This document shows, piece by piece, positions 11,294 through 55,911 of a DNA stretch of 64,000 nucleotides (its first letter is position 1; each line of letters begins with the position of its first letter). Location: NCBI GenBank assembly GCA_016866335.1, contig VGMT01000002.1:1-64000 (forward strand), in the 5' to 3' direction. The translations under genes and the position numbers were made by a program. Below the pieces are notes generated by a model. That model saw nothing but the letters and a program-made list of their open reading frames with translations, did no database searches and had not been told where the DNA came from. The stretch comes from Bacteroidota bacterium (lineage in GTDB: Bacteria > Bacteroidota > Bacteroidia > CAIKAF01).

Positions 11294-11329
11294 GGGTCCG
11301 GACACTTCGGTGTTCGGGCCCTTTTTTTT
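11294..11329 (+). terminator. Intrinsic terminator of the second giant gene
   Basis: A 12-bp stem (GGGTCCGGACAC with GTGTTCGGGCCC, with one G-T and one mismatch) closes a TTCG loop and is followed by eight Ts. The T run is shared with the A-tract edge of element HP1 on the other strand. Confidence 0.88.
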
Positions 11330-11486
11330 GTGGCGGCTGCGGGCTTTCACCGGTAGTCCTTGGTGCTTGCCCAAGGGCCCAGCGGGCTTGCGGTGGCTCC
11401 TAAAGTCGCCTCCGCGCCGCGCGGGCCCTAGGGCCAGCTCCTTCGGGCTACCCTGGTTCAATCCCTGCCGCGGGCCGCTCAGGGCA
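11322..11486 (-). repeat. Structured intergenic element HP1
   Basis: Read on the minus strand, this copy has the outer box GCGGCCCGCGGCAGGGATTGA, the left arm (plus-strand 11414-11453), the core GGAGGCGACTTTAGGAGCC (minus strand, 11413-11390), the right arm (11389-11352), GGTGAAAGCCC and an edge of GCCGCC then A8. The arms are complementary (GGTAG, GCCC and AGGGCCC blocks pair). The outer box pairs with the far edge (GCGG with CCGC, GGG with CCC). It lies head to head with HP2 between convergent genes. Confidence 0.85.
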
Positions 11487-11516
11487 TTGCTGTTGTTGTA
11501 AAACCATTTTTAGCTG

Positions 11517-11674
11517 TGAGGCGCTGCGCCAGGGATTGCAGCGGCAGGCGGCGAAGCCGGCAAAACAAGCGGCAGGCAGCCGGGGCGGGCGACCTTGTGG
11601 AGCCACGCCGCGGCCCTGCTGCTTTTTGCCGGCTAGCCGACTACAGCGGAAAGCCCGTTAGGCGCCCCAAAAAA
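11517..11674 (+). repeat. Structured intergenic element HP2
   Basis: The outer box is TGAGGCGCTGCGCCAGGGAT, the core is GGCGACCTTGTGGAGCC (near 11588-11604), and the end is GCGGAAAGCCCG then GGCGCCCC and A6. Left (11538-11585) and right (11610-11644) arms share the complementary block GCCGGCAAAA. GGCGC of the outer box pairs with GCGCC near the edge. With HP4 it forms a subgroup that has GATTGCAGC and GCGGAAAG in place of GATTGAACC and GGTGAAAG. Confidence 0.83.
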
Positions 11675-11680
11675 GAACCA

Positions 11681-12076
11681 TTACGAAGCCTTGTTTGCCT
11701 CGTTTTTGTACCAGCGCAAGGCCAGCATTTCGAAGCCGGTGTACACCATATAGCAAAGGAAAAAAAGAAGTACAAAGCTCATGGTGATGCCTTCGCTGCT
11801 GATGTAAAACATAAGGCCTAAAAAGGCTAGGTAAGCCAGCATTTTAAAGGCCATGGCCATCATAAAATTCATTTGAAAGCGACTGGGGTTTGCGCTGATT
11901 GACCTTAAGAGCAACTGATGGCTAATGCCTGTAATTAAATAGAAAGCGGGAATAATCAAGAAATTTTCATCGACCAAGCTCATGCCCGAAGCTTTGCGAA
12001 AAGCGATGTAGGCGGCGCTAAGGCCTAAGGAAATCAAAGAAAGTACAAGGAAGTATTTGTTGCCGTTGTTTTTCAT
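11681..12076 (-). CDS. Small membrane protein of the AtpZ neighbourhood
   Basis: The 131-residue product starts MKNNGNKYFLVLSL and has about four hydrophobic segments (near residues 8-26, 40-60, 72-95 and 100-118), so it is an inner-membrane protein. The start at ATG overlaps the AtpZ stop by four bases (ATGA), which argues for translational coupling and against an upstream in-frame start. In many Bacteroidota a small membrane protein of unknown function sits between atpZ and atpB (I recall the family as DUF6168). This gene fits that place, but no atpB follows. The assignment rests on position more than on motifs. Confidence 0.7.
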   Translation of the reverse strand: MKNNGNKYFLVLSLISLGLSAAYIAFRKASGMSLVDENFLIIPAFYLITGISHQLLLRSISANPSRFQMNFMMAMAFKMLAYLAFLGLMFYISSEGITMSFVLLFFLCYMVYTGFEMLALRWYKNEANKAS

Positions 12077-12279
12077 GGTTTGCTTAATTTTTTTGCCACA
12101 TAGGCAATGGAAAGCAGTACAAAGATAAGAATGCAAATGGGCGATGCGATGTTGGTTTTGTAACGCTCATCAAGGTAATGGCCCAGAAAAGCTCCTAGGG
12201 CAATAAAACCGAGCATTTGCATTCCTAGGCCCGAATAGATTAGGGCCTGTTTCAGGGCTGTTTTTTTTTGGTTATTCAC
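12073..12279 (-). CDS. AtpZ/AtpI family membrane protein
   Basis: The 68-residue product has two transmembrane segments (LIYSGLGMQMLGFIALGAFLG and the ICILIFVLLSIAYV stretch) with the family signature G-x-x-LD between them (GHYLDERYKT). AtpZ/AtpI proteins (PF09527) help assemble the F0 rotor or carry magnesium or calcium beside the ATP synthase. I chose the GTG start, which overlaps the bactofilin stop by eight bases. An ATG 54 bases upstream (12333) would add 18 unconserved-looking residues and a 62-base overlap. Confidence 0.78.
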   Translation of the reverse strand: MNNQKKTALKQALIYSGLGMQMLGFIALGAFLGHYLDERYKTNIASPICILIFVLLSIAYVAKKLSKP

Positions 12280-12628
12280 CCGATTTTGATTCAAGCATGG
12301 TGCATTGCCCCTGAAATTGGGCACCGTTTTCAATGCTGAGCAGGGAGGTGCTTAGATTTCCCTTTAGAAGAGCGCTGCTTCGCAGGGTACAGCTGTTTTG
12401 GGCCAGAACGTCGCCAAAGATCTTTCCCAGCAATTCTAGGTGTTGGCAAACGATGTTGCCCTGAATTTCTGCGTTTTTTCCAATAACCAACCTAGCTGAG
12501 CAATGGATGTTTCCCTCTACTTTTCCGTCGATTCTTAAACTTTCGTTGGCTTCAACTTGGCCATGAATACGGGTCGATTCGTTGATAAGGTTTGGCGAAT
12601 CGGGGCTTATGGAACTTCTTTTAAGCAT
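12272..12628 (-). CDS. Bactofilin (polymer-forming cytoskeletal protein)
   Basis: The 118-residue product has the bactofilin (PF04519) pattern of short beta-helix rungs with regularly spaced hydrophobics and glycines: IHGQVEANESLRIDGKVEGN, then ARLVIGKNAEIQGNI and LLGKIFGDV. Bactofilins polymerise without nucleotide into filaments at the membrane and guide cell shape or wall enzymes. The length is typical for a small family member. It is eight bases downstream of sprE and shares its transcription unit. The N-terminal tail is short and carries no membrane segment. Confidence 0.9.
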   Translation of the reverse strand: MLKRSSISPDSPNLINESTRIHGQVEANESLRIDGKVEGNIHCSARLVIGKNAEIQGNIVCQHLELLGKIFGDVLAQNSCTLRSSALLKGNLSTSLLSIENGAQFQGQCTMLESKSGE

Positions 12629-12636
12629 GTGGGGCG

Positions 12637-15180
12637 TTATTTGTAGTTCTCTTTGGTCCAGAGTCGGAAGGCGGGAACATCTTGTTCTTTGAACAGCAAA
12701 CCCAAATTTGGAATGGATGTAGGGAGTAGAATGAGCTCTTTTTTGCCAAATGCTTCGCGAATGGCGGGGTCTTTTTCGGCGGCCTGAACATAATTCATCG
12801 CGTCTTTGGCGTCGTTGAATTTACGAAGGGTGAGCAGTTGTGTTTTTTTGCCTAGAACGGTGTTTGAGATGGTCAGGTTTTTGCTTTTGAAAGCCAGGGC
12901 ATTGAAGTTGCTAATGGCTGTTTTAAGGGGTTCGGGGTTGAAACCGGCATCGTCAATGATGGCAACCACCATATGCTGCAGGTTGTCGCGGTAGGTGTAG
13001 GGTAGTGGTTTGTCGGTTTTAGCGGCGGTATCGGCGGGAAGGGTGTCTGCTTTTTCCGCGGCTGGGGCTTTAACGCCGAGCATGCTGAGCATTCGTTCGG
13101 CTGTTTCGGCCGATTCTGTTTTAGGGTGTTTGCTTATAATTCCTTTCAGTGCTTCGATGAATGCGGGGTTGTTGGCCGTGTCGCGAAGGGCTAAGACTTC
13201 GAGCAGGTCGAACCTATGCAGCATTGGGCTTTCTTTGAGTTGGCTTTGAGCGGAACGAACGGTTTTTAGGCAGGCCTGCATATTGGCAGCGGTGTAAAAT
13301 TGGTAGGCTTCGCGGTATAGGGGCTGGGCCTTGTTTGCTTCTTCTTCTAAGCGTGCCAGGTAATTGGGGTCGGTAAGCAGTTGGGCATACTGGCTGCTTG
13401 GATATTCGGTAACAATGCGTTTTTTAATGTTATCGGCCTCGGCTTTTTGGTTGCCGCTAAGCAGGTTTAAATACCATTGATATAAGGCTAAAGGGTAGTG
13501 TCGGCTGGGGTTAAATCGGGTATCAAGTTCCTTGTAGGTAAGAATAGAGCGTTGGTTGTCGGCCAGTTTTTCTTTGTACACCTGGGCCAAGGCAAACAGG
13601 GCATCTTCGATGAGCAGCAAGGAGTTTTTTTTAGCCGAATCAGAAAGGGGAAGTTCGTTCAGGTAGGTTTCTGGATTGTAGCGTTGGGCCAAAAGGTTGT
13701 TGGCGGTGTCGATGCCCTCATTTCCGGGTGCCGAAGCCCCACCGCGGTAGCGCCTCCAATGATCGACCAGCGGTCGGTTTCCCCAAACTTTTTTAAATTC
13801 TTCGGCTCCCATGAGTTTAGCCTGAGGGTTTGTAAAGTACCAAGCACCTGTGGGTCCGTCGTTTCCAACAGCTTGGTCGCCTTCTTCTTTTTTCTTTTTT
13901 GCTTCTTCGTCGTCGAGTTGCAGTTGTTCTACATAGTTTTCGGCCCATTTTTGCCGTTCTTTATCGGGCAATCCGGCTAATTTTAACAGGGAGTCTTGAA
14001 GATGAATTGTTTTTAAATGTTGAACGGCTTCGGCTAGGTTGTCGCGCAAACGAACCACATCTTCGTACCGAGGGTGTTCTTTGTTTAGATTGGCGGCACA
14101 GGAATCGTAGTATGCTTGAGCTTCGGTGTAGTTGGGGAGATCCAATGATAGGTCGGCCAATTTTAGGTAGGCTGATGATTTTTGATCGGAGTTGTCGGTA
14201 GAGGCTGCAATGGATTTTTTAAGGTGATCTATGGCTTGAACCCGCTTGTCTTCTTTTAAATCAAGAATGGCAAGGGCATAATAAATCTGATCTCGGTACT
14301 CGATGTTTTTATCGTCCTTGAGCATTTTGGCAAACATCTTTCGGAGCGTTTCCGCGTTTTTGTTTCCGGCGTTGTTGGCCATGCGAATTTGAGCCTGAAA
14401 CTCCATGGCATATTCTGGTTTGGTTTTCAGGCAGGCTTCAAAAGCCTTGTATGCGGCATCTTGGTCTTTTGAAGCCTCGTGCAATTGCCCTAGGATAAAT
14501 TGGTATCTTGACAGGTACGGCTTTCGTTTTTCCAATTTAATGGCATCGGTAAGCAGGTCAATGGCTTCGGGGTAGCGGTTTTGCAGAATAAAATATTCGG
14601 TCTGGGCGGCATAAAAGTCGCTGGCCTGTTGGTTGTCGAGCACTTCTTTGTTCACGGCCCGAATGGCAGCTCTGGATTGGGCAAATTCTTTTTGTTGGTT
14701 GTACAGGCGAATCAGCCAAATTTTTGAAGTATTGCAGCTTTTTTCTGATTCTGTTTCTGCGGCAGAATAGGTAAATTGGCCGGCCGCAAGAAAGTACTCT
14801 TTTTTGTAAAAATTGCCTATGGCCATGATGCGGTAGCAATCGTCAATCCATGAATTGCATTGCTTACCATTGATAAGCATACTGTGTTTTTTAATCATCA
14901 GCCCCCCTTTTTCAATGGCCTTTTCGGCGTAGGTGTTTATGGGGGTCCATTGGTCTTCGCGCCCTTCTGGGAAAACCGGAAGGATTAGAGCATAATTGTC
15001 TTTTCGGTCTTTCAGAATGGCCTGATAGCCCTCCTTCAGTGCTTCGTTTCCATTGAAATAGCCGTTGTATCGGGTGTTTAAGCGGTGCCAAAATCGGCTT
15101 AGTTTCGTGTCCTTTCTAACCGAACATGCGCTGAGGAAAATCAGCAAGAAAACCACACTTTTTTGCGCAATCTGTTTCAT
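12637..15180 (-). CDS. sprE: T9SS-associated TPR lipoprotein SprE/PorW
   Basis: The 847-residue product begins with a lipoprotein signal (VFLLIFLSAC, lipobox LSAC) and then the stretch RYNGYFNGNEALKEG, which is characteristic of SprE/PorW. TPR-like helical repeats fill residues of about 100-650, and the C-terminus (LLFKEQDVPAFRLWTKENYK) matches the family's ending. SprE/PorW is an outer-membrane lipoprotein needed for type IX secretion and, in gliding species, for motility. It is reported to link the PorK/N ring to the translocon. The start overlaps the preceding lipoprotein stop by four bases. A location beside bactofilin and atpZ is the usual one in flavobacteria. Confidence 0.87.
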   Translation of the reverse strand: MKQIAQKSVVFLLIFLSACSVRKDTKLSRFWHRLNTRYNGYFNGNEALKEGYQAILKDRKDNYALILPVFPEGREDQWTPINTYAEKAIEKGGLMIKKHSMLINGKQCNSWIDDCYRIMAIGNFYKKEYFLAAGQFTYSAAETESEKSCNTSKIWLIRLYNQQKEFAQSRAAIRAVNKEVLDNQQASDFYAAQTEYFILQNRYPEAIDLLTDAIKLEKRKPYLSRYQFILGQLHEASKDQDAAYKAFEACLKTKPEYAMEFQAQIRMANNAGNKNAETLRKMFAKMLKDDKNIEYRDQIYYALAILDLKEDKRVQAIDHLKKSIAASTDNSDQKSSAYLKLADLSLDLPNYTEAQAYYDSCAANLNKEHPRYEDVVRLRDNLAEAVQHLKTIHLQDSLLKLAGLPDKERQKWAENYVEQLQLDDEEAKKKKEEGDQAVGNDGPTGAWYFTNPQAKLMGAEEFKKVWGNRPLVDHWRRYRGGASAPGNEGIDTANNLLAQRYNPETYLNELPLSDSAKKNSLLLIEDALFALAQVYKEKLADNQRSILTYKELDTRFNPSRHYPLALYQWYLNLLSGNQKAEADNIKKRIVTEYPSSQYAQLLTDPNYLARLEEEANKAQPLYREAYQFYTAANMQACLKTVRSAQSQLKESPMLHRFDLLEVLALRDTANNPAFIEALKGIISKHPKTESAETAERMLSMLGVKAPAAEKADTLPADTAAKTDKPLPYTYRDNLQHMVVAIIDDAGFNPEPLKTAISNFNALAFKSKNLTISNTVLGKKTQLLTLRKFNDAKDAMNYVQAAEKDPAIREAFGKKELILLPTSIPNLGLLFKEQDVPAFRLWTKENYK

Positions 15181-15401
15181 CGGTTTGCAGGTTCACAGCC
15201 TTGTTCTATGGCTCGGTTGCTAAACTCTGACCAAGATAATTTGGGCGTTTGGGGCAAGGCCTCGTAGGTATCTTGGCAAATTACGGTTTTGGGTAAATCG
15301 CCGCTATGATTTGTACAATCGATGCAATCGGGCGGGGCGCAAGAGAGCAAGCACACCAAAGCAGAAACTGCAAGGGCAAATAAAAAGCGTCTGTTCAGCA
15401 T
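15177..15401 (-). CDS. Small cysteine-containing lipoprotein
   Basis: The 74-residue product has a signal sequence with lipobox LLSC and a short mature part with two more cysteines in the first ten residues (CAPPDCIDC) and others later. I do not recognise the family. Its stop overlaps the sprE start (ATGA), so it is probably co-translated with sprE and may act at the outer membrane with the T9SS. It starts 22 bases after the upstream gene ends. Confidence 0.7.
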   Translation of the reverse strand: MLNRRFLFALAVSALVCLLSCAPPDCIDCTNHSGDLPKTVICQDTYEALPQTPKLSWSEFSNRAIEQGCEPANR

Positions 15402-15423
15402 AACAGGCTAAGAAGCAACTGTT

Positions 15424-16164: not shown

Positions 16165-16192
16165 GCGTTGTTGGGTTAAATCTAACAGGCTT

Positions 16193-16364: not shown

Positions 16365-16379
16365 TGCAAAATCCTGTGT

Positions 16380-20279: not shown

Positions 20280-20280
20280 G

Positions 20281-20385
20281 TTTGCGCCCTTTGATAGGGC
20301 TGCACCCTATCCTAGCGTATTGCGCCCTTTGATAGGGCTGCACCCTATCCTAACATATTGCGCCCTTTCAGGGCTTTGCGGCTTG
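20281..20385. repeat. Short hairpin repeat cluster, family II, 38-bp period
   Basis: TGCGCCC starts at 20283, 20321 and 20359, an exact 38-base period. The first two units carry the palindrome ATAGGG-CTGCA-CCCTAT; the third ends in GCGCCCTTTCAGGGC as in the 4-kb cluster. The stem differs from the one at 4 kb (CACAGGG/CCCTGTG) on both sides at once. Confidence 0.85.
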
Positions 20386-20950
20386 GAGGAATTTGTTTTA
20401 GTTGATGGTTGTTGGACAGGGATGGGAGCGGTTTGGCGTAAAGTTACGACGATTAGAGTCGCAATCTGTCTGTTTAACAGAAAGGACCCCCATGGGCTGG
20501 TCAAATTTATTCTTGATTGTTGCTGCGACAAAAAATTTGAAGTACGTTATAATTTCCTTCCTCCAACGTAATCAACCTTCTTTGTTTTCCGCCTCAACAA
20601 CCTATTTCAAAAAGGGTATATCGCCACTACACCCCGTCTCAATCCCTATATTCCCGCCTCAAGACTTCAGCAAAGTTACCTTTGTTATTGCCAAGAAGCA
20701 CCTTTGAGACCCCCGAGTAAACCTTGGATTTCCTTGCGGAAATCTTTTGACTTACCCATCACACTTCACTCCAAATGAACCCTAAGTGTTCTTCGCCACC
20801 CCAAATACGTGACGAAGCAAATTCATTCAAAAAATTGTTTCACTAGTGAGCTTCAAAATTACGAAGGGCGTATAGACTTGTCAAGTGAAATTTTCATTTT
20901 TTTGATTTTTTTTAGAAATGGGCTGTATGGTTTTGGACTGGCATTGTTTG
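20386..20950. other. Gene-poor stretch
   Basis: No convincing gene is seen. Open frames on both strands are short, lack family features and cross repeat sequence. The composition is AT-rich in its second half. It may hold decayed sequence or a small RNA, but nothing specific can be pointed to. Confidence 0.5.
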
Positions 20951-21113
20951 TGAGGATTGCGGGAGGGATTGAACCAGGTGGCCCGCAAGGGTGTCAAGCC
21001 CCGGCCCCGCGTGGGGCGGAGGCGACTTCAGGAGCCACCGCAACCCCGCTGGGGCCGAGGCTTACAACCGCGGACCACTGGTGAAAGCCCGTTTACCCGC
21101 CCCCCCAAAAAAA
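20951..21113 (+). repeat. Structured intergenic element HP3
   Basis: The outer box is TGAGGATTGCGGGAGGGATT then GAACC; the core at 21018-21041 is GGAGGCGACTTCAGGAGCC followed by ACCGC; the end is GGTGAAAGCCCG, CCCGCC and A7. Left arm 20975-21017 and right arm 21042-21080 are complementary over most of their length (GGCCCCGC with GCTGGGGCC, CAGG/CCACTG). GCGGG of the outer box pairs with CCCGC at the edge. It lies upstream of the AlbA_2 gene. Confidence 0.85.
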
Positions 21114-28266: not shown

Positions 28267-28310
28267 ACTTTTTGATTTAAAAATCAGGCTTAAGGCGAGG
28301 TGAAAGGGGG

Positions 28311-28465
28311 TTTTTAGGGCGGTTGCGGGCTTTCCGCGCTAGTCCGCGGTGCCGGGGCGCTTCGGCAGCGGGCCCAAGGTAGCTCCCAAGGTCGCTCCTT
28401 GTTCCTCGCGCCGAAGTGCCCCAGCCCCTTTCGGGCTAGCAGCTGCAATCCCTACCGCAGCGCCT
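28311..28465 (-). repeat. Structured intergenic element HP4
   Basis: Read on the minus strand: AGGCGCTGCGGTAGGGATTG, left arm (plus 28399-28443), core GGAGCGACCTTGGGAGC, right arm (plus 28336-28375), GCGGAAAGCCCG and a CCGCCCT edge. Arms pair through GCTAG, GGGGC and CTTCGGC blocks. The apical GGC/GCC pair of the other copies is AGC/GCT here, a paired change. It lies between convergent genes. Confidence 0.83.
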
Positions 28466-28482
28466 TATACCTAAGAATTCCC

Positions 28483-28978: not shown

Positions 28979-31147
28979 TTAAAAGTCTTCTAAATTAAAA
29001 TCCAATTGCCTTCGTTGCAAATCGGTGTGCTTTACGCTTACCTGAACTCGATCGCCCATCCGAAAAAGATGCCCTTTTCGTTGGCCTCGCACGCAAAAGT
29101 TTTTTTCATCGAAGGAGTAATAGTCGCTTTCAATGTCGCGCAGACGTACCATTCCTTCGCACTTATTTTCTACCAGTTCAACATACATTCCCCATTCGGT
29201 CAGGCCGCTCACCATGCCTTCGAACACTTCACCCCGCCGTTCTCTCATGAATTCCACCTGCTTGTAGCGGTTGCTGGCTCTTTCCGCCTCGGCCGCTTTT
29301 TTTTCCATGGCACTGGAATGCTTGCACGCATCTTCAAGGGGCGGGGCGCTGGCTGCCGGTTTTCCTATCAGGTAATCGGCAATCAGACGATGAGCCAATA
29401 CGTCCGGATACCGTCGAATGGGTGAAGTAAAGTGGGAATAATAATCGAATCCAAGACCGTAATGCCCTATGTTTTTGGTGGTGTAAACGGCTTTTGCCAT
29501 GCTTCGAATGGCCAATGACTGGATGGTTTGTTGCTCCGGTTTTCCTTTTATTTCATCGAACAGGGCGTTTAGCCCTTTGGTGATGTTTTTGGGGTGGGTT
29601 AAATCTAGGCTGTATCCAAATAAGGCTATAAACCGTTTGAATTCCTTTAATTTTTCTTGGTCGGGTAAATCATGAACCCTATAAACGAAGGTTTTTACCT
29701 GCTTGTTCGGATTGTCTTTTTTCCCTGCATATTCGGCCACAGCTTTGTTTGCAAGCAGCATAAATTCTTCAATCAGGTGGTTGGCTTCTTTGCTTTCCTT
29801 AACAAACACACTTAAGGGTTTCCCTTTTTCATCTAGCTTGAACTTGATTTCTGTCGATTCTATGCGCAGCGCTCCGTGTTCAAAGCGGCGTTTTCGGAGT
29901 GCAAGTGCCATGCGGTGCAAAACCAAAAGGGGTTCCGAAGGAATTTTCTGCCCCTTCGTTTTACCGGTTTCTATAATTTCTTGGGCCTGTTCGTAGGCGA
30001 ATCTTTGGTCGGAGTGAATTATGGTTCGGCCTATCCAGGTGTTTGATATATACCCCTCTGAATTGATGGTAAAAACCACCGAAAACGTGAGTTTGTCTTC
30101 GTGCGGCCTTAAACTGCAAAGTCCGTTTGATAGTTTTTCAGGCAGCATTGGAACGGTCCGATCCACCAAATAGACACTGGTGGCTCGTTTGCGGGCCTCA
30201 TCTTCCAGTGCCGATCCGGGTTTAACGTAGTGCGACACATCGGCTATGTGCACTCCCACCTCCCAAAGCCCATCTGAAAGGGATTGAATAGAAAGGGCAT
30301 CATCAAAATCCTTGGCGTCCTCGGGGTCAATCGTAAGCGTTAAAACCTGCCTCATGTCGCGGCGGCTCGCAATTTCTTCGGCCGAAATTTCTGTTGAGAT
30401 GGCTTCCGCCTCTTTTTCGACCGCCGGGGGGAACTCGACCGAGAATCCAAATTCCAATAAAATGGCATGCATCTCGGTTTCATTTTCACCCGATTTCCCC
30501 AAAACCCGAATTACCTTAGCTGTAGCGTTTTTCCCATCGGCAGGCCATTCTACGATTTCAACCAGTACTTTTTCCCCGTTTTTTGCCTCGCCCAGCCATT
30601 TTCCTGGAATAAAAAAGTCCTGTTGAACTTTATCGCTGTCGGGAACCAAGAAAGCATAGGTGTCAGAAACTTGAAGGGTTCCCACGAATTGGTGATGCGC
30701 CCGTTCCAGAATCTCTACAATTTCAGCTTCCATACGCCCATTTTTTCGACGGATCGAAACAAAGGCCCGGACTTTATCTCCGTGCATGGCCGACATCATT
30801 TTGCCTGAAGGAATAAATACGTCTTGCGTCATCCCCTCTACGGCCAAAAAACCGTTTCCTGATGAAACCAAAGCAAGATGCCCTTCGATGTGACCTTTGG
30901 GGACGGTCCACTTGTATTTTCCGGGTTCTACTTCTTCAAGGTCCCCTTTTTGCACGAACGTATCCAAACATTCTTGCACCAGAATACGTGTAAAGGCGTC
31001 GGAAGATTCAACGCCGCAGCGGGAAGAAATTTGCTTGTAGTTAAGAGTCTGTGGAGGATTTTTATCGAAAATCGTGCGTATGTCTTTCAGCAACTGCCTA
31101 CGGACCTTGCTTAATTGTTGTTGAACCTTTTTTTTTCTTCTTGCCAT
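28979..31147 (-). CDS. rnr: Ribonuclease R
   Basis: The 722-residue product has an N-terminal winged-helix part (about 10-85), cold-shock-like domains (about 85-230), the RNB catalytic domain with the metal-binding aspartates in IDPEDAKDFDDA (273-284) and a C-terminal S1 domain (about 635-720, VSGLTEWGMYVEL). It degrades structured RNA 3' to 5' and takes part in RNA turnover and ribosome quality control. It lies 19 bases downstream of pdhB and ten bases before the lipoprotein gene, so the three look like one transcript. Confidence 0.95.
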   Translation of the reverse strand: MARRKKKVQQQLSKVRRQLLKDIRTIFDKNPPQTLNYKQISSRCGVESSDAFTRILVQECLDTFVQKGDLEEVEPGKYKWTVPKGHIEGHLALVSSGNGFLAVEGMTQDVFIPSGKMMSAMHGDKVRAFVSIRRKNGRMEAEIVEILERAHHQFVGTLQVSDTYAFLVPDSDKVQQDFFIPGKWLGEAKNGEKVLVEIVEWPADGKNATAKVIRVLGKSGENETEMHAILLEFGFSVEFPPAVEKEAEAISTEISAEEIASRRDMRQVLTLTIDPEDAKDFDDALSIQSLSDGLWEVGVHIADVSHYVKPGSALEDEARKRATSVYLVDRTVPMLPEKLSNGLCSLRPHEDKLTFSVVFTINSEGYISNTWIGRTIIHSDQRFAYEQAQEIIETGKTKGQKIPSEPLLVLHRMALALRKRRFEHGALRIESTEIKFKLDEKGKPLSVFVKESKEANHLIEEFMLLANKAVAEYAGKKDNPNKQVKTFVYRVHDLPDQEKLKEFKRFIALFGYSLDLTHPKNITKGLNALFDEIKGKPEQQTIQSLAIRSMAKAVYTTKNIGHYGLGFDYYSHFTSPIRRYPDVLAHRLIADYLIGKPAASAPPLEDACKHSSAMEKKAAEAERASNRYKQVEFMRERRGEVFEGMVSGLTEWGMYVELVENKCEGMVRLRDIESDYYSFDEKNFCVRGQRKGHLFRMGDRVQVSVKHTDLQRRQLDFNLEDF

Positions 31148-31166
31148 ACTGCGGTTTGCGGGACGA

Positions 31167-32147
31167 TTAATCCCTGTACATCACCTTTTTGGCAGCACGA
31201 ACAATTCGGTCGGCATTGGGCAAAAATGCATCAACCAGGGTTGGGGCATACGGAAGAGGCGTGTCGGCCCCGGTAACCCGCAAGGCAGGAGCGTCTAAAT
31301 AATCAAAAGCATGCTCTTGAACATGAAACGTCAATTCAGTAATGATGTTTCCTAAAGGCCAGCTCTCTTCGATGCACACCAGTCGGTTTGTTTTTTTAAC
31401 CGAATTCACGACCGAGGCATAATCTATGGGGCGCAAAGACCTGAGGTCAATGACCTCGGCCGAGATCCCTTCTTTGGCCAATTCTTCCGCTGCCAAAACA
31501 ACCTGCTTCATCATTTTTCCATACGAAACCAAGGTAACATCGCTGCCCTCACGGTCAATGCGGGCAAGTCCTAGGGGAATCAAATATTCCTCTTCAGGAA
31601 CCAATCCTTTGTCGCCATACATTTGCTCTGACTCCATAAAAATAACCGGGTCGTTGTCGCGAATGGCTGTTTTTAAGAGTCCTTTGGCATCTGCCGGGTT
31701 GCTTGGCACCACCACTTTCAACCCTGGGCAGTTGGCGTACCAATTGTCGAACGATTGACCATGGGTTGCAGCCAATTGCCCTGCAGAACCGGTTGGGCCG
31801 CGGAAAACAATGGGTACGTTAACCTGCCCGCCCGACATCTGGTACATTTTTGCGGCGTTGTTGATTATCTGGTCAATAGCCACCAACGAAAAATTAAAGG
31901 TCATAAACTCAACAATAGGGCGAAGACCATTCATGGCGGCACCTACGCTAATCCCTGCAAATCCCAGTTCGGCAATAGGGGTGTCAATTACCCTTTTCGC
32001 GCCAAATTCCTCCAACATTCCCTGGCTTACCTTGTACGCTCCATTGTATTCAGCTACCTCTTCGCCCATCAAGTAGATAGAAGTGTCGCGTCGCATTTCC
32101 TCGGTCATCGCTTCGCGAAGGGCTTCCCTAAATTGAATTTCTCGCAT
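31167..32147 (-). CDS. pdhB: Pyruvate dehydrogenase E1 component, beta subunit
   Basis: The 326-residue product matches alpha2beta2-type E1 beta subunits: REALREAMTEEM at the N-terminus, GEEVAEYNGAYKVSQG, the FAGISVGAAMNGLRPIVEFM core, FRGPTGSAGQLAATHGQSF and the C-terminal VTGADTPLPYAP. With the alpha subunit it binds thiamine diphosphate and decarboxylates pyruvate for the dehydrogenase complex. The alpha subunit is not in the window. I chose the internal ATG giving MREIQFREA, since the nine residues before it read back into the promoter. Confidence 0.94.
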   Translation of the reverse strand: MREIQFREALREAMTEEMRRDTSIYLMGEEVAEYNGAYKVSQGMLEEFGAKRVIDTPIAELGFAGISVGAAMNGLRPIVEFMTFNFSLVAIDQIINNAAKMYQMSGGQVNVPIVFRGPTGSAGQLAATHGQSFDNWYANCPGLKVVVPSNPADAKGLLKTAIRDNDPVIFMESEQMYGDKGLVPEEEYLIPLGLARIDREGSDVTLVSYGKMMKQVVLAAEELAKEGISAEVIDLRSLRPIDYASVVNSVKKTNRLVCIEESWPLGNIITELTFHVQEHAFDYLDAPALRVTGADTPLPYAPTLVDAFLPNADRIVRAAKKVMYRD

Positions 32148-40691: not shown

Positions 40692-40850
40692 ACGCGGCCC
40701 GCGCCCCCGATTGAGCCGGCAGGCGGCGATGAGCCACCGGCTTCGGCAAGCGGGCGAGGAGGCGACTTTAGGAGCCACCGCAGCCCCACTTGCCGACCGG
40801 TTGCTCAAGCCGACTACAGGTGAAAGCGGGACAAGGCGCCCCCCAAAAAA
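40692..40850 (+). repeat. Structured intergenic element HP5
   Basis: The outer box is CGGCCCGCGCCCCCGATTGA; the core at 40758-40781 is GGAGGCGACTTTAGGAGCC then ACCGC; the end is CTACAGGTGAAAGCGGG, GGCGCCCCCC and A6. Left arm 40715-40757 and right arm 40782-40820 pair through TGAGC, ACCGG and TCGGCAAG blocks. Here the second helix is CCC/GGG, the reverse of HP1-HP4. It lies in the divergent gap between porQ and purB. Confidence 0.86.
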
Positions 40851-40903: not shown

Positions 40904-42262
40904 ATGAGCTCCCTGAATGCCCTGAAATCCATAAGTCCGATTGACGGTAGGTATGCTGGAATTACTGCGGCTGCCTCTGTGTATTTCTCTGAATATGCGC
41001 TGATTAAGTATAGAATTCGGGTGGAAACCGAATATTTTTTGGCCCTTTCCGAGGCCAACTTGCCGGGCTTGCCCGCGCTGAGCCGGCAGCAAAAAGTGGC
41101 CTTGCGCGAACGGCTTTTGAAAATTCAAGATCAAGACGTGCTGGCCGTTAAGGAAATTGAATTGAGGACCAACCACGACGTGAAGGCCGTTGAGTACTTT
41201 ATGCAGCAGGTCTTTGACGACATGGGCCTGCCTCAGCAATCCAAAGCTTTTATTCATTTTGGCCTGACCTCGCAAGACATCAACAATACGGCCATTCCTT
41301 TAACGATTAAAGACTGGCATGAAGAGGTGGGCGAGCCCCTGCTGCAGGATTTGATTCAGCATTTACGCGTGCAGGCCGAGGCTTTCAAAGATGTGCCCAT
41401 GCTGGCGCGTACCCATGGACAACCCGCTTCGCCAACCCGAATGGGCAAGGAATGGATGGTGTTTGTAGAACGCCTTGAAAATCAGGCGAAAATGTTGCAA
41501 TCCATTGATTTTCAATGCAAATTTGGCGGCGCAACCGGGAATTTTAACGCCCATTATGCCGCCTATCCAGGCCAAAATTGGCCGGCTTTTGCCGACCGGT
41601 TTTGCCGAGAACACCTGGGTTTGGAACGGCAGCGCTTTACCACTCAGGTTGAACATTACGACATGTTGGGCGCTTTTTTTGATGCATGGAAACGCATTGC
41701 CGTAATTTTGATTGACTTTTGCCGAGATGTTTGGCAGTACATTTCCATGGATTATTTTCGGCAGCGGATTCGGAAAAATGAGGTGGGCTCGTCGGCTATG
41801 CCTCACAAAGTCAATCCGATAGACTTTGAAAACGCCGAAGGGAATTTGCTGTGGAGCATTCCCATGTTGGAGTTTTTTCCGGTCAAGCTTCCCGTAAGCC
41901 GCTTGCAGCGGGATTTGACCGACAGCACGGTGCTGCGCAACGTTGGGGTGCCATTTTCACATATTATGATTGCCCTGACTTCGATTAAGAAGGGTTTGGG
42001 GAAAATAAAACTGAATGCCCAGGCCATTTTGGACGATTTAAATCGGCATCCCGAGGTGATTGCCGAGGCCATTCAAACCATTCTGCGGCGCGAGGGCTTG
42101 GCAGATGGGTACGACAAATTAAAGGATTTTTCGCGTACGGGCGAATCGCTGGGTCTCGAGGATTTGCAAGCCTTTGTGCGCAGTCTTAAATTGAATTCGG
42201 CGGTCGAAAACGAGCTGTTGGCCCTGCACCCCCGGCATTATCTGGGCGATTTTTTGCATTGA
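40904..42262 (+). CDS. purB: Adenylosuccinate lyase
   Basis: The 452-residue product has SPIDGRYAGITAAASVYFSEYAL at the N-terminus, the TSQDINNTA motif (about 126-134), the ARTHGQPASPTRMGKE active-site segment and the superfamily signature SSAMPHKVNPIDFENAEGN (about 297-315). It splits adenylosuccinate and SAICAR in purine synthesis. An ATG six bases upstream is an equal start choice. A longer frame back to 40790 would translate HP5. The stop codon touches the T tract of HP6, so the gene is closely bracketed by two inverted elements. Confidence 0.95.
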   Translation: MSSLNALKSISPIDGRYAGITAAASVYFSEYALIKYRIRVETEYFLALSEANLPGLPALSRQQKVALRERLLKIQDQDVLAVKEIELRTNHDVKAVEYFMQQVFDDMGLPQQSKAFIHFGLTSQDINNTAIPLTIKDWHEEVGEPLLQDLIQHLRVQAEAFKDVPMLARTHGQPASPTRMGKEWMVFVERLENQAKMLQSIDFQCKFGGATGNFNAHYAAYPGQNWPAFADRFCREHLGLERQRFTTQVEHYDMLGAFFDAWKRIAVILIDFCRDVWQYISMDYFRQRIRKNEVGSSAMPHKVNPIDFENAEGNLLWSIPMLEFFPVKLPVSRLQRDLTDSTVLRNVGVPFSHIMIALTSIKKGLGKIKLNAQAILDDLNRHPEVIAEAIQTILRREGLADGYDKLKDFSRTGESLGLEDLQAFVRSLKLNSAVENELLALHPRHYLGDFLH

Positions 42263-42417
42263 TTTTTTTTGGGCGCCTTTTCCCGCTTTCACCTGTAGCG
42301 CCCGGCAGCCCAACCTGCAAACAGGGCCTTGCGGTGGCTCCCAAGGTCGCCTCCTCAGGCGCTGTTTGATGGGTTGGGCTGCCGGCCACTGCCGGTTCAA
42401 TCGGGGGCGCGGGCCTC
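42263..42417 (-). repeat. Structured intergenic element HP6
   Basis: Read on the minus strand: GAGGCCCGCGCCCCCGATTG then AACC, left arm (plus 42355-42395), core GGAGGCGACCTTGGGAGCC then ACCGC, right arm (plus 42293-42330), CTACAGGTGAAAGCGGG, GGCGCCC and A8. The arms contain a 13-base perfect match (CGGCAGCCCAACC with its complement) plus CAAACAG. Its boxes are nearly identical to those of HP5, while its arms are not. It starts on the base after the purB stop. Confidence 0.87.
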
Positions 42418-42468
42418 TTGCCGTTTTAATTTGATTTCTTGTTCCTTGAACGCCGCTTCAGTTTAGGC

Positions 42469-51034: not shown

Positions 51035-51073
51035 AAAATTTGTCTTTTTTACGACAACAATTTAAACAATTTA

Positions 51074-51087: not shown

Positions 51088-51140
51088 AGGCAACCCTGCT
51101 TTTTTGGGCTTGCCTTTGTTCCTCTAACCAAAGTACCCAT

Positions 51141-51956: not shown

Positions 51957-51994
51957 ATTTTACACAAATTTAAAGCAGGATAAATCCAAAATAT

Positions 51995-52002
51995 TACCTT
52001 TG
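51995..52002 (+). promoter_or_regulatory. Bacteroidota -7 box for the GEVED protein gene
   Basis: TACCTTTG matches TAnnTTTG exactly, 67 bases before the ATG. Confidence 0.7.
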
Positions 52003-52069
52003 TGTTAAGAAATTAAATCAATCTGAAATGCTCGAAATGGCATTCTAATTCAAATTAAAACCAAACTTT

Positions 52070-55000
52070 ATGAAAACAATCCGTACACGATTGGGGCTTC
52101 TTTCGACGAAAGTTGCATTGATTGCGGGGCTCTTTTTGGCAGGGGTAAGCCTGCAAGCCCAATATTGCATTCCTTCAGGCAACTGTTCTTTCGGAGACGA
52201 AATTCAAAACTTTACCTTAAACACCATTAACAACAACACTTCCTGTACAGGTGGTTATTCCGATTTTAGTGGCAGCATAAGTACAACCTTGAATGCGGGA
52301 ATCCCATACCCGTATTCCGCTACGTTTGGTTATTCTGATCAAGGTTTAGGGATGTGGTTGGACATAAATCAAGATGGCGATTTTGACGATGTAGGGGAGT
52401 TTGTTTCTTCGGTTCCTTATGTTTTTGGCTCTTTTTCTGCCAACGGAAGCCTTACCATTTCGGGTACGGTCAATTCAGGAACCTACCGCTTGCGCGTGCG
52501 AAATTGGTGGAACAATGATTTTCTTGGTTTTCCTGGCGAGGCCTGTCAGGCGGTTAGTTACGGCGAAACAGAAGATTACACCGTTGTTGTTGTAAATAAT
52601 GCCTGTGTGGCTCCTCCAAACCCAGGCGTTGCCAATGCGCCCGCTTCCGTTTGTGCTGGTGTTGCTTTTAATGTTTCCCTAAGCGGGATGTCGCTAGGAA
52701 GCGGTCAAACCTACCAATGGCAATCTTCGCCCAATGGTACAACCTGGGCCTCTATTCCTGGCGCTACAAACATCAACCTATCTACTACTGCCAATTCCCC
52801 AACGCATTACCGCTGCATTGTTACCTGCTCAGGGCAATCTGATACTTCTGGCGCAGGTGTACTATCAACCATTATACCCGCCAATATTTGCAATGTATGT
52901 GCCTCTTCCGGTATGTTTAGTGGCGATACCTACCTTGAAGGGGTTCAGCTTGGGGCGATCAATGCCATCAACACGGCTTGTGCAAACTATACCGACAACA
53001 CCAACCTTTCAACCCTGGTAATTAAGGGCGGAAATTATTCCGGAAACATTATTCATGGCGATTGCGATGGGGGGGGAGTTTATTCTAGAGGAGTTTTGGT
53101 TTGGGCCGATTGGAATGCCAATGGCTTGTTTACTGACCCCGGCGAACAACTTATGTCTATTTCTGCCCCTGGAACAGCAAGCCAGGCCGAAGCCCTTAGC
53201 TTCACCGTTCCTTTAAATGCCGCAAATGGCCCCATTTTGATGCGCGTGATCGCCTCAGAAGACGGAGTTACAACGCCACCCTGCGGTTCATACTTCTACG
53301 GCGAAACCGAAGATTATGTGTTGATCGTTGCCGACCCTCCTTACAACGATGCCGGAATTGCCCAATTGATTTCTCCCTCCCCAAATCTATGTTTCGTCTC
53401 CGATACCATTCGGGTTCGTCTAGAAAACGTTGGTCAGGTGCCTTTAACTACCTGCCAATTTAACGTTAGGGTAAACAATGGATCGGTTCAAACATTCAAC
53501 TGGACCGGCAACATTGGGCCCAATACGGCTCAGAACGTGTTTGTAGGTAGCACCGTTCTTAACGATGGCGACTTCTTGAAAGTTTGGACCAGCTTACCTA
53601 ATGGCGTTCAAGATTCCTTGAATTTTAACGACACATTGCAACAGAATGTGTACCAATCTATGAATGGTATTTATACCATTGGTGGTAGCAATCCCAATTT
53701 CAGTACCATCAATGCAGCCTTGTCTGCCCTGCAAACCCGCGGTGCATGCGGCAACGTTACGTTGAATGTTAGGTCTGGTACCTATGTTGAGCAAATGAGG
53801 TTGCAAACCTTCCCCGGAAATGCTACTTCTAGCGTTGTTTTGCAGTCTGAGGTTCAAAATGCCGACTCGGTGCGCATACAATTTGCCGCAAACACCCAAG
53901 TCGGAAATTACGTGGCTTGGTTTGAGACGGTCGAGAAATTTACCCTTAATCAGGTAACCTTGGCAGCTACAGGCTTTAGCTTTTCTACCAATGTTTTGTT
54001 GAGTGGCAATGGAAAAGACAATACCATTCAGAACTCTAAAATTATTGGAGATACCTTGGCTACGTTTGACAGCAACAACTCCTTTAACATTAAATCTTTG
54101 GTTGACAACGACAATAATTTTGGCCTATTGAACAATACCATTTGGGGAGGTTCAAGGGCTGTAAGTCTTTCGGGGACTTCGGCTGCCAACCCTGAAAAGG
54201 GCGTTCGTTTGATTGGCAATACCATTGAGAAATTCTATTTCGTTGGGGTTGGCTTGTTCAATCATGAAAATCCCGTCGTAAATGGCAATACGATTATTGC
54301 CAGCGGGGGCAACACAAACATGTTTAGATTGTACCTAAATACCGTTTACAATGGTTGCAGCGTTAGCGGCAACAAAATTGGCGGTTCAAATGGAGGTTTT
54401 GGTGTAAATATGGATGGGGTAAGCGGTAGCGTTAGCAACTCTGCGGTTCTGTCGAACAATTTCATTCACATGGGCGATACCATGAATGCCCAAAACTCAG
54501 AAGCAATTTACATTCAAAATGGCTCCAACCTAATGAATGTATACCACAACAGCGTTGCTGTTTATTCACAAACTGCGAACTCTGCCGCTCTTACCATTGG
54601 TGTAGGTGCGAATGTAGACATCAATCTTAAAAACAACATCTTTGCCCACTACGGGCAGGGTGCTGCCTATGAAATTGATGGTTCACTCAGCATCGCCTCA
54701 TCAAACAACAACGACCTGTTTACCGCGAACGGTCCCTTGGCCCGCTATGCCGGTACTACCCATTCTAATTTGGCTGCTTTCAGTGCTGCAACTGGGCATG
54801 ACTTGAATTCCATTTCGGTTGACCCCTTGTTTACAAACCTTGATATGCATACCTGCTTGGTTGATTTCGACAATGTTGGAGTGGGAGTGGGCGTGATGAA
54901 CGATGTAGACGGAGATACGCGCAATGCTACCACGCCTGATTTGGGGGCCGATGAATTTGTTTTGCCCGCTACTTTTACCTTGGGCAACGACATCTACAAA

Positions 55001-55675
55001 TGTTCTTCGGATAGCGTTATGCTTGGTGCCGAGGTTATTTTGGATGGAACCTATTATTGGAGCACCTTTAGCAACGATCCGCTCATTTATGTTTCAGCAC
55101 CAGGCGAATACAGCCTAACGCTTGTTGCCAACTGTGGAGTGGTGGACGATACCATTGAAGTGTTTGATATCCCAGCACCCGTGGCCAACTTTACCAGCAT
55201 CAACAGCTTCTACACCTATGTGTTTACAAACACCTCGACCAACTCAACTTCGTACAGTTGGAACTTTGGAGACGGCAACACATCTACCGATGTTAACCCC
55301 TTGCATATTTATGGCTCTGATGGAACCTATACCGTAACCCTAACGGCCACAAATTCATGTGGAGAAACCAACACCAAAACCATGCAAGTAACGGTGAATG
55401 TAACTTCCATTGAAGAGAGCGATGCCGCTTCTATTCAGGTGTATCCTAACCCGACGTCTGGAATCACCACTCTAACCATTCAAGGTTTGAATTCTACCCA
55501 AGCTGAAATTCAGTTGATGGATTTGACGGGCCGAATTTTGATGACCAAACAGGTTGAGCTGCTATCTGAAGGCGTAGAAACGACCTTGAACATGAGTAAA
55601 TTCGCCGCAGGGGTTTATGTGGTTCGCATACAGAGCGGAGATTTTAAGGCTGTTCGTCGAATTGTTCGGAAGTAA
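52070..55675 (+). CDS. T9SS cargo protein with GEVED, Ig, beta-helix and PKD modules
   Basis: The 1201-residue product has a signal peptide (to SLQAQ) and a first GEVED module (about 75-180, GLGMWLDINQDGDFDD and SYGETEDYTVVV). An Ig-like module (about 185-270), a second GEVED module (about 285-425, ADWNANGLFTDPGEQ and YGETEDYVLIV) and a CARDB-like module (about 430-520) follow. Next come a right-handed parallel beta-helix (about 530-960, ending in the PDLGADEF motif), a PKD module (about 1040-1115, SWNFGDGN) and a type A sorting domain (VYPNPTSGI to the end). Beta-helix modules often bind or cut polysaccharide, but no catalytic motif is evident. It is a surface or extracellular protein. Confidence 0.9.
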   Translation: MKTIRTRLGLLSTKVALIAGLFLAGVSLQAQYCIPSGNCSFGDEIQNFTLNTINNNTSCTGGYSDFSGSISTTLNAGIPYPYSATFGYSDQGLGMWLDINQDGDFDDVGEFVSSVPYVFGSFSANGSLTISGTVNSGTYRLRVRNWWNNDFLGFPGEACQAVSYGETEDYTVVVVNNACVAPPNPGVANAPASVCAGVAFNVSLSGMSLGSGQTYQWQSSPNGTTWASIPGATNINLSTTANSPTHYRCIVTCSGQSDTSGAGVLSTIIPANICNVCASSGMFSGDTYLEGVQLGAINAINTACANYTDNTNLSTLVIKGGNYSGNIIHGDCDGGGVYSRGVLVWADWNANGLFTDPGEQLMSISAPGTASQAEALSFTVPLNAANGPILMRVIASEDGVTTPPCGSYFYGETEDYVLIVADPPYNDAGIAQLISPSPNLCFVSDTIRVRLENVGQVPLTTCQFNVRVNNGSVQTFNWTGNIGPNTAQNVFVGSTVLNDGDFLKVWTSLPNGVQDSLNFNDTLQQNVYQSMNGIYTIGGSNPNFSTINAALSALQTRGACGNVTLNVRSGTYVEQMRLQTFPGNATSSVVLQSEVQNADSVRIQFAANTQVGNYVAWFETVEKFTLNQVTLAATGFSFSTNVLLSGNGKDNTIQNSKIIGDTLATFDSNNSFNIKSLVDNDNNFGLLNNTIWGGSRAVSLSGTSAANPEKGVRLIGNTIEKFYFVGVGLFNHENPVVNGNTIIASGGNTNMFRLYLNTVYNGCSVSGNKIGGSNGGFGVNMDGVSGSVSNSAVLSNNFIHMGDTMNAQNSEAIYIQNGSNLMNVYHNSVAVYSQTANSAALTIGVGANVDINLKNNIFAHYGQGAAYEIDGSLSIASSNNNDLFTANGPLARYAGTTHSNLAAFSAATGHDLNSISVDPLFTNLDMHTCLVDFDNVGVGVGVMNDVDGDTRNATTPDLGADEFVLPATFTLGNDIYKCSSDSVMLGAEVILDGTYYWSTFSNDPLIYVSAPGEYSLTLVANCGVVDDTIEVFDIPAPVANFTSINSFYTYVFTNTSTNSTSYSWNFGDGNTSTDVNPLHIYGSDGTYTVTLTATNSCGETNTKTMQVTVNVTSIEESDAASIQVYPNPTSGITTLTIQGLNSTQAEIQLMDLTGRILMTKQVELLSEGVETTLNMSKFAAGVYVVRIQSGDFKAVRRIVRK

Positions 55676-55699
55676 TTGAGAAGGGCTATCCTAGTTAAG

Positions 55700-55731
55700 G
55701 GCAAACCGGGTAACCGGTTTGCCTTTTTTTT
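55700..55731 (+). terminator. Intrinsic terminator of the GEVED protein gene
   Basis: A ten-base perfect stem (GGCAAACCGG with CCGGTTTGCC) around a GTAA loop is followed by eight Ts. Confidence 0.92.
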
Positions 55732-55750
55732 GTTGCTTTTTTTACCTTAT

Positions 55751-55911
55751 TGAGGCTCAGCGGCCCGGATGGAGCCGGCACCGCGGGCGGCCCTTGGGCT
55801 GCAGAACGGAGCAGGGCGGGGGCGACCAGGGGAAGCCACCGGCCGGCCCGTTATGCTGCAAGGGCCAACCAAGGTACAGGTGACAGCCGGATAAGCCGCC
55901 CCCCAAAAAAA
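55751..55911 (+). repeat. Structured intergenic element HP7
   Basis: The outer box is TGAGGCTCAGCGGCCCGGAT then GGAGCC; the core near 55819-55842 is GGCGACCAGGGGAAGCC then ACCGG; the end is TACAGGTGACAGCCGG, GCCGCCCCCC and A7. Left arm 55772-55818 and right arm 55843-55880 pair through GGCCCTTG and GCAG blocks. GCGGC of the outer box pairs with GCCGC at the edge and CCGG with CCGG. It follows the terminator and precedes the next promoter. Confidence 0.84.

What the first reader, a model, noticed from the sequence alone, without database searches (positions are those of the whole stretch)
11322..55911. Unrecognised family of seven structured intergenic elements (HP1-HP7)
Seven elements of 155-165 bp lie at 11322-11486 (-), 11517-11674 (+), 20951-21113 (+), 28311-28465 (-), 40692-40850 (+), 42263-42417 (-) and 55751-55911 (+). 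All share, in the same order, a GC-rich outer box ending in GATTGAA or a close variant, a core GGAGGCGAC...GGAGCCACCGC, a TGAAAGC box and a C-rich edge ending in A5-A8. Between these boxes lie two arms that pair with each other in every copy. All copies are intergenic. I know of no named family with this plan. It could be a structured RNA, a REP-like or MITE-like mobile hairpin, or both. No transposase of the RAYT (Y1) type is in the window to explain mobility.
Basis: partly seen in the sequence, partly recalled or inferred. Interest (0 to 1): 0.92.

Follow-up and report, generated by a model that had tools for sequence, protein, structure and literature searches.

The report
Bacteroidota-wide hairpin repeat, long-armed form
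The seven elements belong to a large family of long hairpins scattered between genes of freshwater Flavobacteriales, related at their base to a catalogued but unexplained motif called Flavo-1, and the way they mutate suggests that what is being kept is a folded strand of DNA rather than an RNA.

Summary
In detail: all seven hairpins are real. They belong to a family with 84 full-length copies in the third of the genome I read (about 250 per genome if that holds); the six genus genomes searched all carry it. It is not unconnected to named families: its base, with three near-invariant mismatches (A.G, G.A, C.A), recurs in compact hairpins in 96 of 295 class genomes searched, and a profile built only from this genome's copies finds a member of Rfam Flavo-1 (RF01705) that is over Rfam's cut-off. 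The window copies do not reach that cut-off.

Five of seven copies sit at the same place and orientation in two sister species of 73-80% identity. Their arms changed in step: 44 double changes that keep the pair, 4-6 expected under independence. So the fold is maintained. G.U wobbles are rare and little commoner than A.C, unlike in tRNAs, and mismatches on one strand are mostly purine-purine. I read this as a folded DNA strand, REP-like in function, not a classical RNA. Two of the six genus genomes, including this one, have no detectable Y1 transposase. Function remains inferred.

The parts
11322..11480 (-). HP1, long hairpin element; its A-tail abuts the T-tract of an intrinsic terminator
   Evidence: cmsearch R1 144.6 bits; same place and orientation in G001, G003, G004
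11294..11329 (+). intrinsic-terminator-like hairpin plus T8 that ends in the edge of HP1
   Evidence: read from sequence
11517..11676 (+). HP2, long hairpin element, inverted relative to HP1 between convergent genes
   Evidence: R1 87.3 bits; same place in G001, G003, G004
20950..21111 (+). HP3, long hairpin element
   Evidence: R1 146.7 bits; present in G001, not found at the corresponding place of G003
28308..28467 (-). HP4, long hairpin element, AGCGAC core form
   Evidence: R1 131.4 bits; in G001 only the A-tail-side foot is recognisable, next to tandem repeats
40692..40850 (+). HP5, long hairpin element
   Evidence: R1 100.2 bits; same place in G001 and G003
42262..42419 (-). HP6, long hairpin element
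   Evidence: R1 104.8 bits; same place in G001 and G003
55751..55910 (+). HP7, long hairpin element, lowest-scoring of the seven
   Evidence: R1 58.2 bits; same place in G001 and G003

Best explanation
The seven elements are the long-armed form of a class-wide (Bacteroidia) family of REP-like intergenic hairpins, whose compact form Rfam lists as Flavo-1 RNA. SHOWN: high copy number; one hairpin with a near-invariant foot (fixed A.G, G.A and C.A mismatches) and, in this genus, a conserved tip (GGC-GA-CYTTRG-GA-GCC); arms free in sequence but kept complementary; 5 of 7 genomic places conserved; intergenic siting with the A-tail end close behind stop codons. INFERRED: the selected molecule is the plus strand of the element folded as DNA, when it is single-stranded or extruded; a host protein reads the foot and tip through their fixed mismatches, while the arms only hold them together. 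Copies were spread in the past, presumably by a single-strand DNA (Y1/HUH-type) transposase, and most are now kept in place as boundary or anchor sites behind gene ends, as REPs/BIMEs are thought to act in enterobacteria (recalled). The reading protein is not identified.
For: 84 full-length copies in 819 kb. Model R1, built from own-genome copies only, matches G059:C42:~167,400-167,505 at E 7e-7, a Flavo-1 match over Rfam's cut-off (47.1 bits). Foot model R2: 96 of 295 class genomes; A.G 38/38, G.A 38/38, C.A 37/38 rows. Own-genus fixed mismatches A.G 97/99, G.A 99/99, A.G 90/99, C.A 71/87. 5 of 7 places conserved in G001 and G003; in those five, G000 v G003: 44 double changes keeping the pair, 7 one-sided kept, 22 broken, 192 same, 4-6 doubles expected under independent change. 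G.U 60 and A.C 38 against 4,435 Watson-Crick (same picture at all cut-offs); tRNAs 18 and 1 of 293 pairs (Fisher P 0.003). G.A/A.G 103 v C.T/T.C 7. Plus strand more stable than minus with DNA parameters in 62 of 84. A-tail edge to a facing 3' gene end: median 17 bp (n=49), other edge 92 bp (n=51), P 4e-7. PMC9723704 (passage): Flavo-1 hits seemed indistinctly in sense or antisense of transcribed regions and many were not in them.
Against: G.U still exceeds A.C a little on the plus strand (60:38, P 0.03). Flavo-1 itself gives too few mismatches to decide (24 G.U, 13 A.C; isolated 8 and 7). With RNA parameters neither strand is clearly favoured (33 of 84 plus; P 0.054). The tRNA yardstick is small (14 of 22 distinct tRNAs could be scored). 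The tip CYTTRG resembles an RNA tetraloop (recalled). No orientation bias relative to GC skew (45 of 84, but the skew is weak). Spacing is not clearly even (13 of 1000 under a uniform null, 56 of 1000 under a gap-based null). No reading protein found. Y1 linkage is weak. The same PMC9723704 passage also says that several transcribed 5' regions coincided with Flavo-1 hits.
Confidence: 0.5

Rival explanations
1. A structured RNA, as Rfam files Flavo-1: a small RNA or 3'-UTR element made from the plus strand, whose foot and tip bind a protein.
For: Strong covariation; tip CYTTRG like a tetraloop (recalled); plus-strand preference of mismatches fits a transcript of one strand; Rfam type 'sRNA'; several transcribed 5' regions of F. 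psychrophilum coincide with Flavo-1 hits (passage).
Against: G.U wobble 1.3% of pairs against 6.2% in tRNAs, and G.U:A.C 60:38 against 18:1. Siting has no constant relation to transcription direction: +- 28, ++ 23, -- 21, -+ 10 of 82. In F. psychrophilum Flavo-1 hits seemed indistinctly sense or antisense and many were untranscribed (passage).
Confidence: 0.25
2. An active mobile hairpin (REP or MITE) moved now by a Y1 transposase (RAYT or IS200-like) and neutral to the host.
For: Best pair of copies 96% identical, 23 of 84 with a neighbour of 90% or more. RAYT-like gene in G003 with a copy 149 bp upstream, and the matching G004 contig ends about 20 bp before where that copy would begin. In G002 and G005, 5 of 7 Y1 genes have a copy within about 300 bp; these are 3 of 4 independent loci. 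In 11 of 11 independent Y1 loci with a copy within about 0.8 kb, the foot edge of that copy faces the Y1 gene (counted after seeing the data; copies farther off, as L204:6767-6930, do not all do so).
Against: No Y1 in G000, G001 and G014, all rich in copies, nor in 4 of 22 class genomes picked for 6 or more R2 matches (two of the four under 90% complete). Across the class few Y1 loci carry one: R1 3 of 30 and 1 of 23, about 2 kb away; R2 4 of 30 and 2 of 47 (overlapping sets). G005 has 18 matches in 160 kb, so chance proximity is not negligible. The RAYT-like genes of G003/G004 carry other palindromes of their own. Places conserved for 5 of 7 with compensatory change.
Confidence: 0.15
3. A transcription terminator or roadblock for the gene whose 3' end abuts the A-tail.
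For: A-tail edge lies a median 17 bp behind a stop codon where a gene faces it; 28 of 82 copies between convergent genes.
Against: Read from that gene the T-tract precedes the hairpin, the wrong order for an intrinsic terminator; HP1 has a separate terminator in front. 10 of 82 copies lie between divergent genes.
Confidence: 0.12
4. No selection: arms stay complementary because replication template switching keeps correcting one arm from the other.
For: Wobbles are rare and changes that keep the pair are mostly double, as arm-to-arm copying would leave.
Against: The same mismatches are kept at the same sites in nearly every copy and across the class, and mismatches are 103:7 purine-purine over pyrimidine-pyrimidine. 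Copying would erase or balance both.
Confidence: 0.06

Closest known systems
Flavo-1 RNA, Rfam RF01705 (Weinberg et al. 2010, PMC2864571: table row seen in passages)
   Same: Same foot layout in Rfam's printed consensus (GAUuGaAGcGG .. AgCGgAaAGC, unpaired A and GaA); multi-copy in Bacteroidota; R1, built from long copies, hits a Flavo-1 member over the cut-off; compact class copies score just under the cut-off (8 of 12 loci, 31.6-41 bits against 42).
   Different: Long copies are about 155-162 nt with a genus-specific tip, against a 76-position model; none in the window reaches 42 bits and 10 own-genome loci with long copies give no Flavo-1 match even at E<=5. The own genome has 3 Flavo-1 matches at E<=0.1 (best 2.2e-4); I did not see their places.
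REP / BIME / REPIN elements and TnpA-REP (RAYT), incl. Bacteroidetes subclass 2.6 with 'atypical secondary structures' (PMC6006769: sections 12 and 25 read, other passages seen)
   Same: High-copy intergenic hairpins with conserved mismatches; Bacteroidetes; a RAYT-like gene beside one copy in G003.
   Different: About 155 nt instead of 20-40; no GT[AG]G foot; no Y1 gene detected in this genome; RAYT-like genes of sister species carry other palindromes.
IS200/IS605 and subclass 1.2 TnpA-Y1 (PMC6006769, passages)
   Same: Single-strand hairpin recognition; some Y1 genes of this type (my assignment from motifs) lie close to copies in G002 and G005.
   Different: No Y1 gene inside the elements; linkage not general across the class.
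ERIC / MITE-like intergenic repeats (recalled)
   Same: Size of 100-200 nt, palindromic, intergenic.
   Different: No target duplication could be shown; fixed internal mismatches and covariation across the whole length.

Membership tests
Rfam Flavo-1 (RF01705) | score at or above the gathering score of 42 bits | tested here: not met
   0 matches in the window; none at E<=1 for HP1/HP2; none for 10 own-genome loci with long copies at E<=5; own genome 3 matches at E<=0.1, best 2.2e-4
Rfam Flavo-1 (RF01705) | foot structure and conserved letters | tested here: met
   R1 matches a Flavo-1 member over the cut-off in G059; shared A.G, G.A and C.A mismatches in compact relatives
Rfam Flavo-1 (RF01705) | transcribed RNA | not testable with these tools
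   no expression data for this lineage; G.U:A.C pattern argues against; PMC9723704 passage
REP elements of RAYT systems | 20-40 nt hairpin | tested here: not met
   about 155-162 nt; compact relatives mostly 69-102 nt
REP elements of RAYT systems | GT[AG]G tetranucleotide at the hairpin foot | tested here: not met
   the foot reads GCGGcaGGGATTGA .. GAAAGCCC, no GTAG/GTGG at its base in the consensus
REP elements of RAYT systems | cognate tnpA-REP gene flanked by copies | tested here: not met
   own genome: no Y1_Tnp over the cut-off, best 14.1 bits at a place whose ORFs do not read as a transposase; class: rare proximity; one RAYT-like gene in G003 has a copy 149 bp upstream
REP elements of RAYT systems | high copy, extragenic, palindromic | tested here: met
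   84 in 819 kb, 0 overlapping predicted genes by more than 60 bases
MITE | terminal inverted repeats with target-site duplication | tested here: inconclusive
   no clean empty site with readable flanks; non-coding flanks too diverged
intrinsic terminator | G+C-rich hairpin followed by a T-tract on the transcribed strand | tested here: not met
   plus strand typically ends in A; on the minus strand the T-tract precedes the hairpin

The most novel reading that the evidence does not exclude
Flavo-1 and its relatives are not RNAs. They form a Bacteroidia-wide system of folded-DNA sites, read by an unidentified conserved protein through near-invariant A.G, G.A and C.A mismatches, and kept by selection at fixed places between genes (chromosome organisation or gene-end boundary), with clade-specific arms and tips such as the long form found here.
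Probability: 0.33. Interest if true: 0.8.

Novelty: new variant of a known kind. Interest (0 to 1): 0.6.

Why it matters
Flavo-1 has been catalogued as an RNA of unknown function since 2010. The search found three papers in the held library; the passages of them that I saw give no function. Linking it to a larger family, with a fixed mismatch code and compensatory change at conserved places, turns 'what is Flavo-1?' into a test: does folded DNA or folded RNA of the foot hold a specific protein? It also warns that strong covariation alone does not prove an RNA.

Tried and rejected
Active RAYT mobilisation: searched PF01797 in the own genome and 59 relatives, then read 20 regions around Y1 matches and 20 more around weak-scoring Y1 matches, and scanned Y1 loci with R1 and R2. 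Proximity is occasional; rejected as the present cause, kept as a possible origin. The orientation pattern (foot edge towards the Y1 gene in 11 of 11 independent loci with a copy within about 0.8 kb, counting L215/L218, L216/L220, L204/L207, L185/L221 and L199/L212 once each) was seen after the fact and is only a lead; at larger distance L210 (2 kb) agrees, L204:6767-6930 and its counterpart at L207:1-119 do not.

Replication-strand bias: orientation against local GC skew, 45 of 84; the skew is weak, so not decisive. Even spacing: a first null gave 1 of 500, fairer ones 13 and 56 of 1000; dropped. Common neighbour gene of compact copies: among 30 loci no ORF cluster spans more than two loci. 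Empty-site and target-duplication reading at HP3, HP4 and further loci: flanks too diverged or replaced by other repeats. Rfam below threshold on HP1/HP2: microRNA, CRISPR-repeat and int-alpA matches taken as chance. A first G.U/A.C count mixed fixed sites in (75 v 197) and was replaced by the site-wise count. A first tRNA yardstick could not see A.C (9 tRNAs) and was replaced; of its 22 distinct tRNAs 14 could be scored. An 'isolated mismatch' count gave 25 G.U v 37 A.C for long copies (one fixed site removed) and 5 v 15 for Flavo-1; the latter includes the fixed C.A site, so it was redone further out. In the Flavo-1 counts 39 distinct elements of 53 loci entered; the rest were duplicates or had no recognisable feet. 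A first reading of class-wide mismatch columns was off by one for three of four sites and corrected.
Full report
WHAT IS THERE. The seven reported hairpins were read and aligned. A profile from them, run over the window plus seven contigs or parts of contigs of the same genome (819,064 of 2,451,745 bases), gives 84 full-length copies at E<=1e-6 and no more on iteration; at the same density the genome would hold about 250 (extrapolation). Lengths are tight (about 155-162 nt). Median identity between copies is 57%, best pair 96%, and 23 of 84 have a neighbour of at least 90%, so the family is mostly old with some younger amplification. No copy overlaps a predicted gene by more than 60 bases.

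STRUCTURE. Each copy aligns to one long imperfect hairpin. On 84 rows and 54 pairs, 48 pairs show changes on both sides; 83.7% of cells pair (shuffles 63.7%), covariation score 0.453 (shuffles 0.140; slid partners 0.08-0.15). To avoid a model that favours wobbles, I aligned each 5' arm with the reverse complement of its own 3' arm under symmetric scoring (101 of 103 copies from G000, G001, G003 and G004 used; two lacked a recognisable core). Mismatches at fixed sites are nearly universal: A.G 97/99, G.A 99/99 and A.G 90/99 in the base GGGATTGAAC/GTGAAAGCCC, C.A 71/87 further in, A.C or A.A 66/74 near the tip. The loop mostly reads GA-CTTTAG-GA (37 of 83) or GA-CCTTGG-GA (19 of 83), its inner pair covarying (U-A 48, C-G 28 of 84).

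DNA OR RNA. At all other sites that are mostly Watson-Crick, G.U is rare (60 against 4,435 Watson-Crick, 1.3%) and only somewhat commoner than A.C (38); the picture holds at every cut-off tried. In tRNAs from the held loci (22 distinct found, 14 fitting a four-stem pattern and scored) the counts are 18 G.U and 1 A.C of 293 pairs (Fisher P 0.003 on the ratio, 5e-7 on the G.U share). A helix kept as RNA should tolerate G.U far better than A.C. Mismatches are purine-purine on the element's plus strand (G.A/A.G 103 against C.T/T.C 7; G.G 36 against C.C 4), and DNA energies favour the plus strand in 62 of 84. I read this as a folded plus DNA strand. Against it: G.U does exceed A.C slightly (P 0.03), RNA energies do not separate the strands (33 of 84 plus), the yardstick is small, and the mismatches are not independent events. 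For Flavo-1 itself the numbers are too few (24 G.U, 13 A.C; isolated 8 and 7).

CONSERVATION AT FIXED PLACES. The window is syntenic with G001 (contig lengths as in CAILUT, the MAG ErkenSummer_bin-6618; about 80% identity) and G003 (contig lengths as in CAIKAF, LaPlata_bin-1703; about 73%). HP1, HP2, HP5, HP6 and HP7 have a same-orientation copy at the matching place in both, HP1 and HP2 also in G004; HP3 in G001 only; HP4 in G001 only as a remnant foot beside tandem repeats. For the five, G000 against G003: 192 pairs unchanged, 44 changed on both sides and kept, 7 changed on one side and kept, 22 broken (alignment and structure made from the same sequences). Independent change at the same divergence would give 4-6 kept doubles. 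Not every locus is stable: at L026:1256-1413 G001 has short GTAG-type palindromes instead and G003 a diverged copy.

WHERE IT SITS. In element orientation the neighbouring genes are +- 28, ++ 23, -- 21, -+ 10 of the 82 copies with both neighbours. Where a gene's 3' end faces the A-tail edge the gap is a median 17 bp (n=49, 29 within 25 bp); where it faces the other edge, 92 bp (n=51, 10 within 25 bp; P 4e-7). Between some convergent pairs there are two copies, A-tails outward, as HP1/HP2. No bias against GC skew (45 of 84), with a weak skew; spacing not clearly even.

RELATIVES. Model R1 finds matches in 20 of 60 relatives, with 48 or 49 matches (49 candidates scored per genome, so a floor) in all six genus members searched. 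Further out the arms often shorten and the tip changes but the foot stays. A foot model, R2, finds 96 of 295 class genomes at E<=1e-4. In 38 aligned rows (37 distinct, from 36 loci; 7 of the distinct rows had lent their feet to R2) A.G is 38/38, G.A 38/38 and C.A 37/38, with covariation 0.284 against 0.091 in shuffles (the alignment was fitted to R2). Of 12 loci holding compact copies searched below threshold, 8 match Rfam Flavo-1 at the place of the copy, 31.6-41 bits, cut-off 42. R1's match in G059 (locus L162) is a Flavo-1 match over the cut-off (47.1 bits). In the 60 relatives Flavo-1 itself is over the cut-off in 13. So the family is a long-armed relative of Flavo-1, not a Flavo-1 member by Rfam's own criterion.

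LITERATURE. PMC2864571 (table row seen in passages) lists Flavo-1 as a probable RNA, not cis-regulatory, in Bacteroidetes. PMC9723704 (passage) reports that in F. psychrophilum several transcribed 5' regions coincide with Flavo-1 hits, but that hits seemed indistinctly in sense or antisense and many were not in transcribed regions, which fits a DNA element. PMC9029176 (passages) lists it among abundant sRNAs without function. PMC6006769 (sections 12 and 25 read, other passages seen) describes Bacteroidetes subclass 2.6 TnpA-REP genes flanked by atypical hairpins without GTAG; its supplementary list was not available to me. Searches for the foot letters, for RF01705 and for Flavo-1 phrases (listings only) brought no description of the long form; one search listed 20 of 124 papers.

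MECHANISM. Y1 transposases could have spread the family, but G000, G001 and G014 have no detectable Y1 gene while rich in copies, and 4 of 22 class genomes with 6 or more R2 matches also lack one. The RAYT-like genes of G003/G004 carry other palindromes of their own; strict patterns for three of these have no match in the 819 kb of G000. I therefore favour host-kept DNA hairpin sites, REP-like in function, read by an unidentified protein. The reading protein, the moment when the strand folds, and the benefit are all inferred.

Noticed in passing
G000:C40:15481-15569 (L282): A compact 89-nt member in the same genome, looking like an internal deletion of a long copy: foot kept, tip lost.
   Followed up: partly
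L204:2978-3835 and L207 (G003:C5, G004:C206): A RAYT-like gene with its own GTAGAGACGCAC..GTGCGTCTCTAC palindromes on both sides and inside the gene; upstream of it one of our hairpins has its second half replaced by such a palindrome.
   Followed up: partly
L205:2781-3413 (G003:C26): A RAYT-like gene with a YIHQNP motif holds palindromes (GGGGCAGAC.., GGGCGAAC..) within its reading frame and has a long hairpin 149 bp upstream.
   Followed up: partly
window 20280-20390: Two to three repeats of TTGCGCCCTTTGATAGGGCTGCACCCTATCC; a sub-threshold match to Rfam Acido-Lenti-1 (33.8 bits, cut-off 37) lies at about 20331-20375.
   Followed up: no
G001:C56 about 30,750-31,500: Tandem repeats occupy the place of the HP4 counterpart; G003 has a different short tandem repeat there.
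   Followed up: no
L044 about 13,713 and G001:C62:2462-3189: G001 has 728 bp more than G000, reading like part of a RES-Xre toxin-antitoxin pair (recalled, no family search); G000 seems to keep only the end of the second gene.
   Followed up: no
L339-L342 (viral contigs) and 25 Bacteroides/Phocaeicola/Parabacteroides plasmid records: A strict 3'-foot pattern occurs in 4 viral contigs, and a compact member finds partial matches in 25 plasmid records, so compact forms may travel on mobile DNA.
   Followed up: no
L215-L220 (G002, G005): IS200-like Y1 genes lie beside long hairpins at 5 of the 7 Y1 loci read (L214-L220), each time with the foot edge towards the gene.
   Followed up: partly
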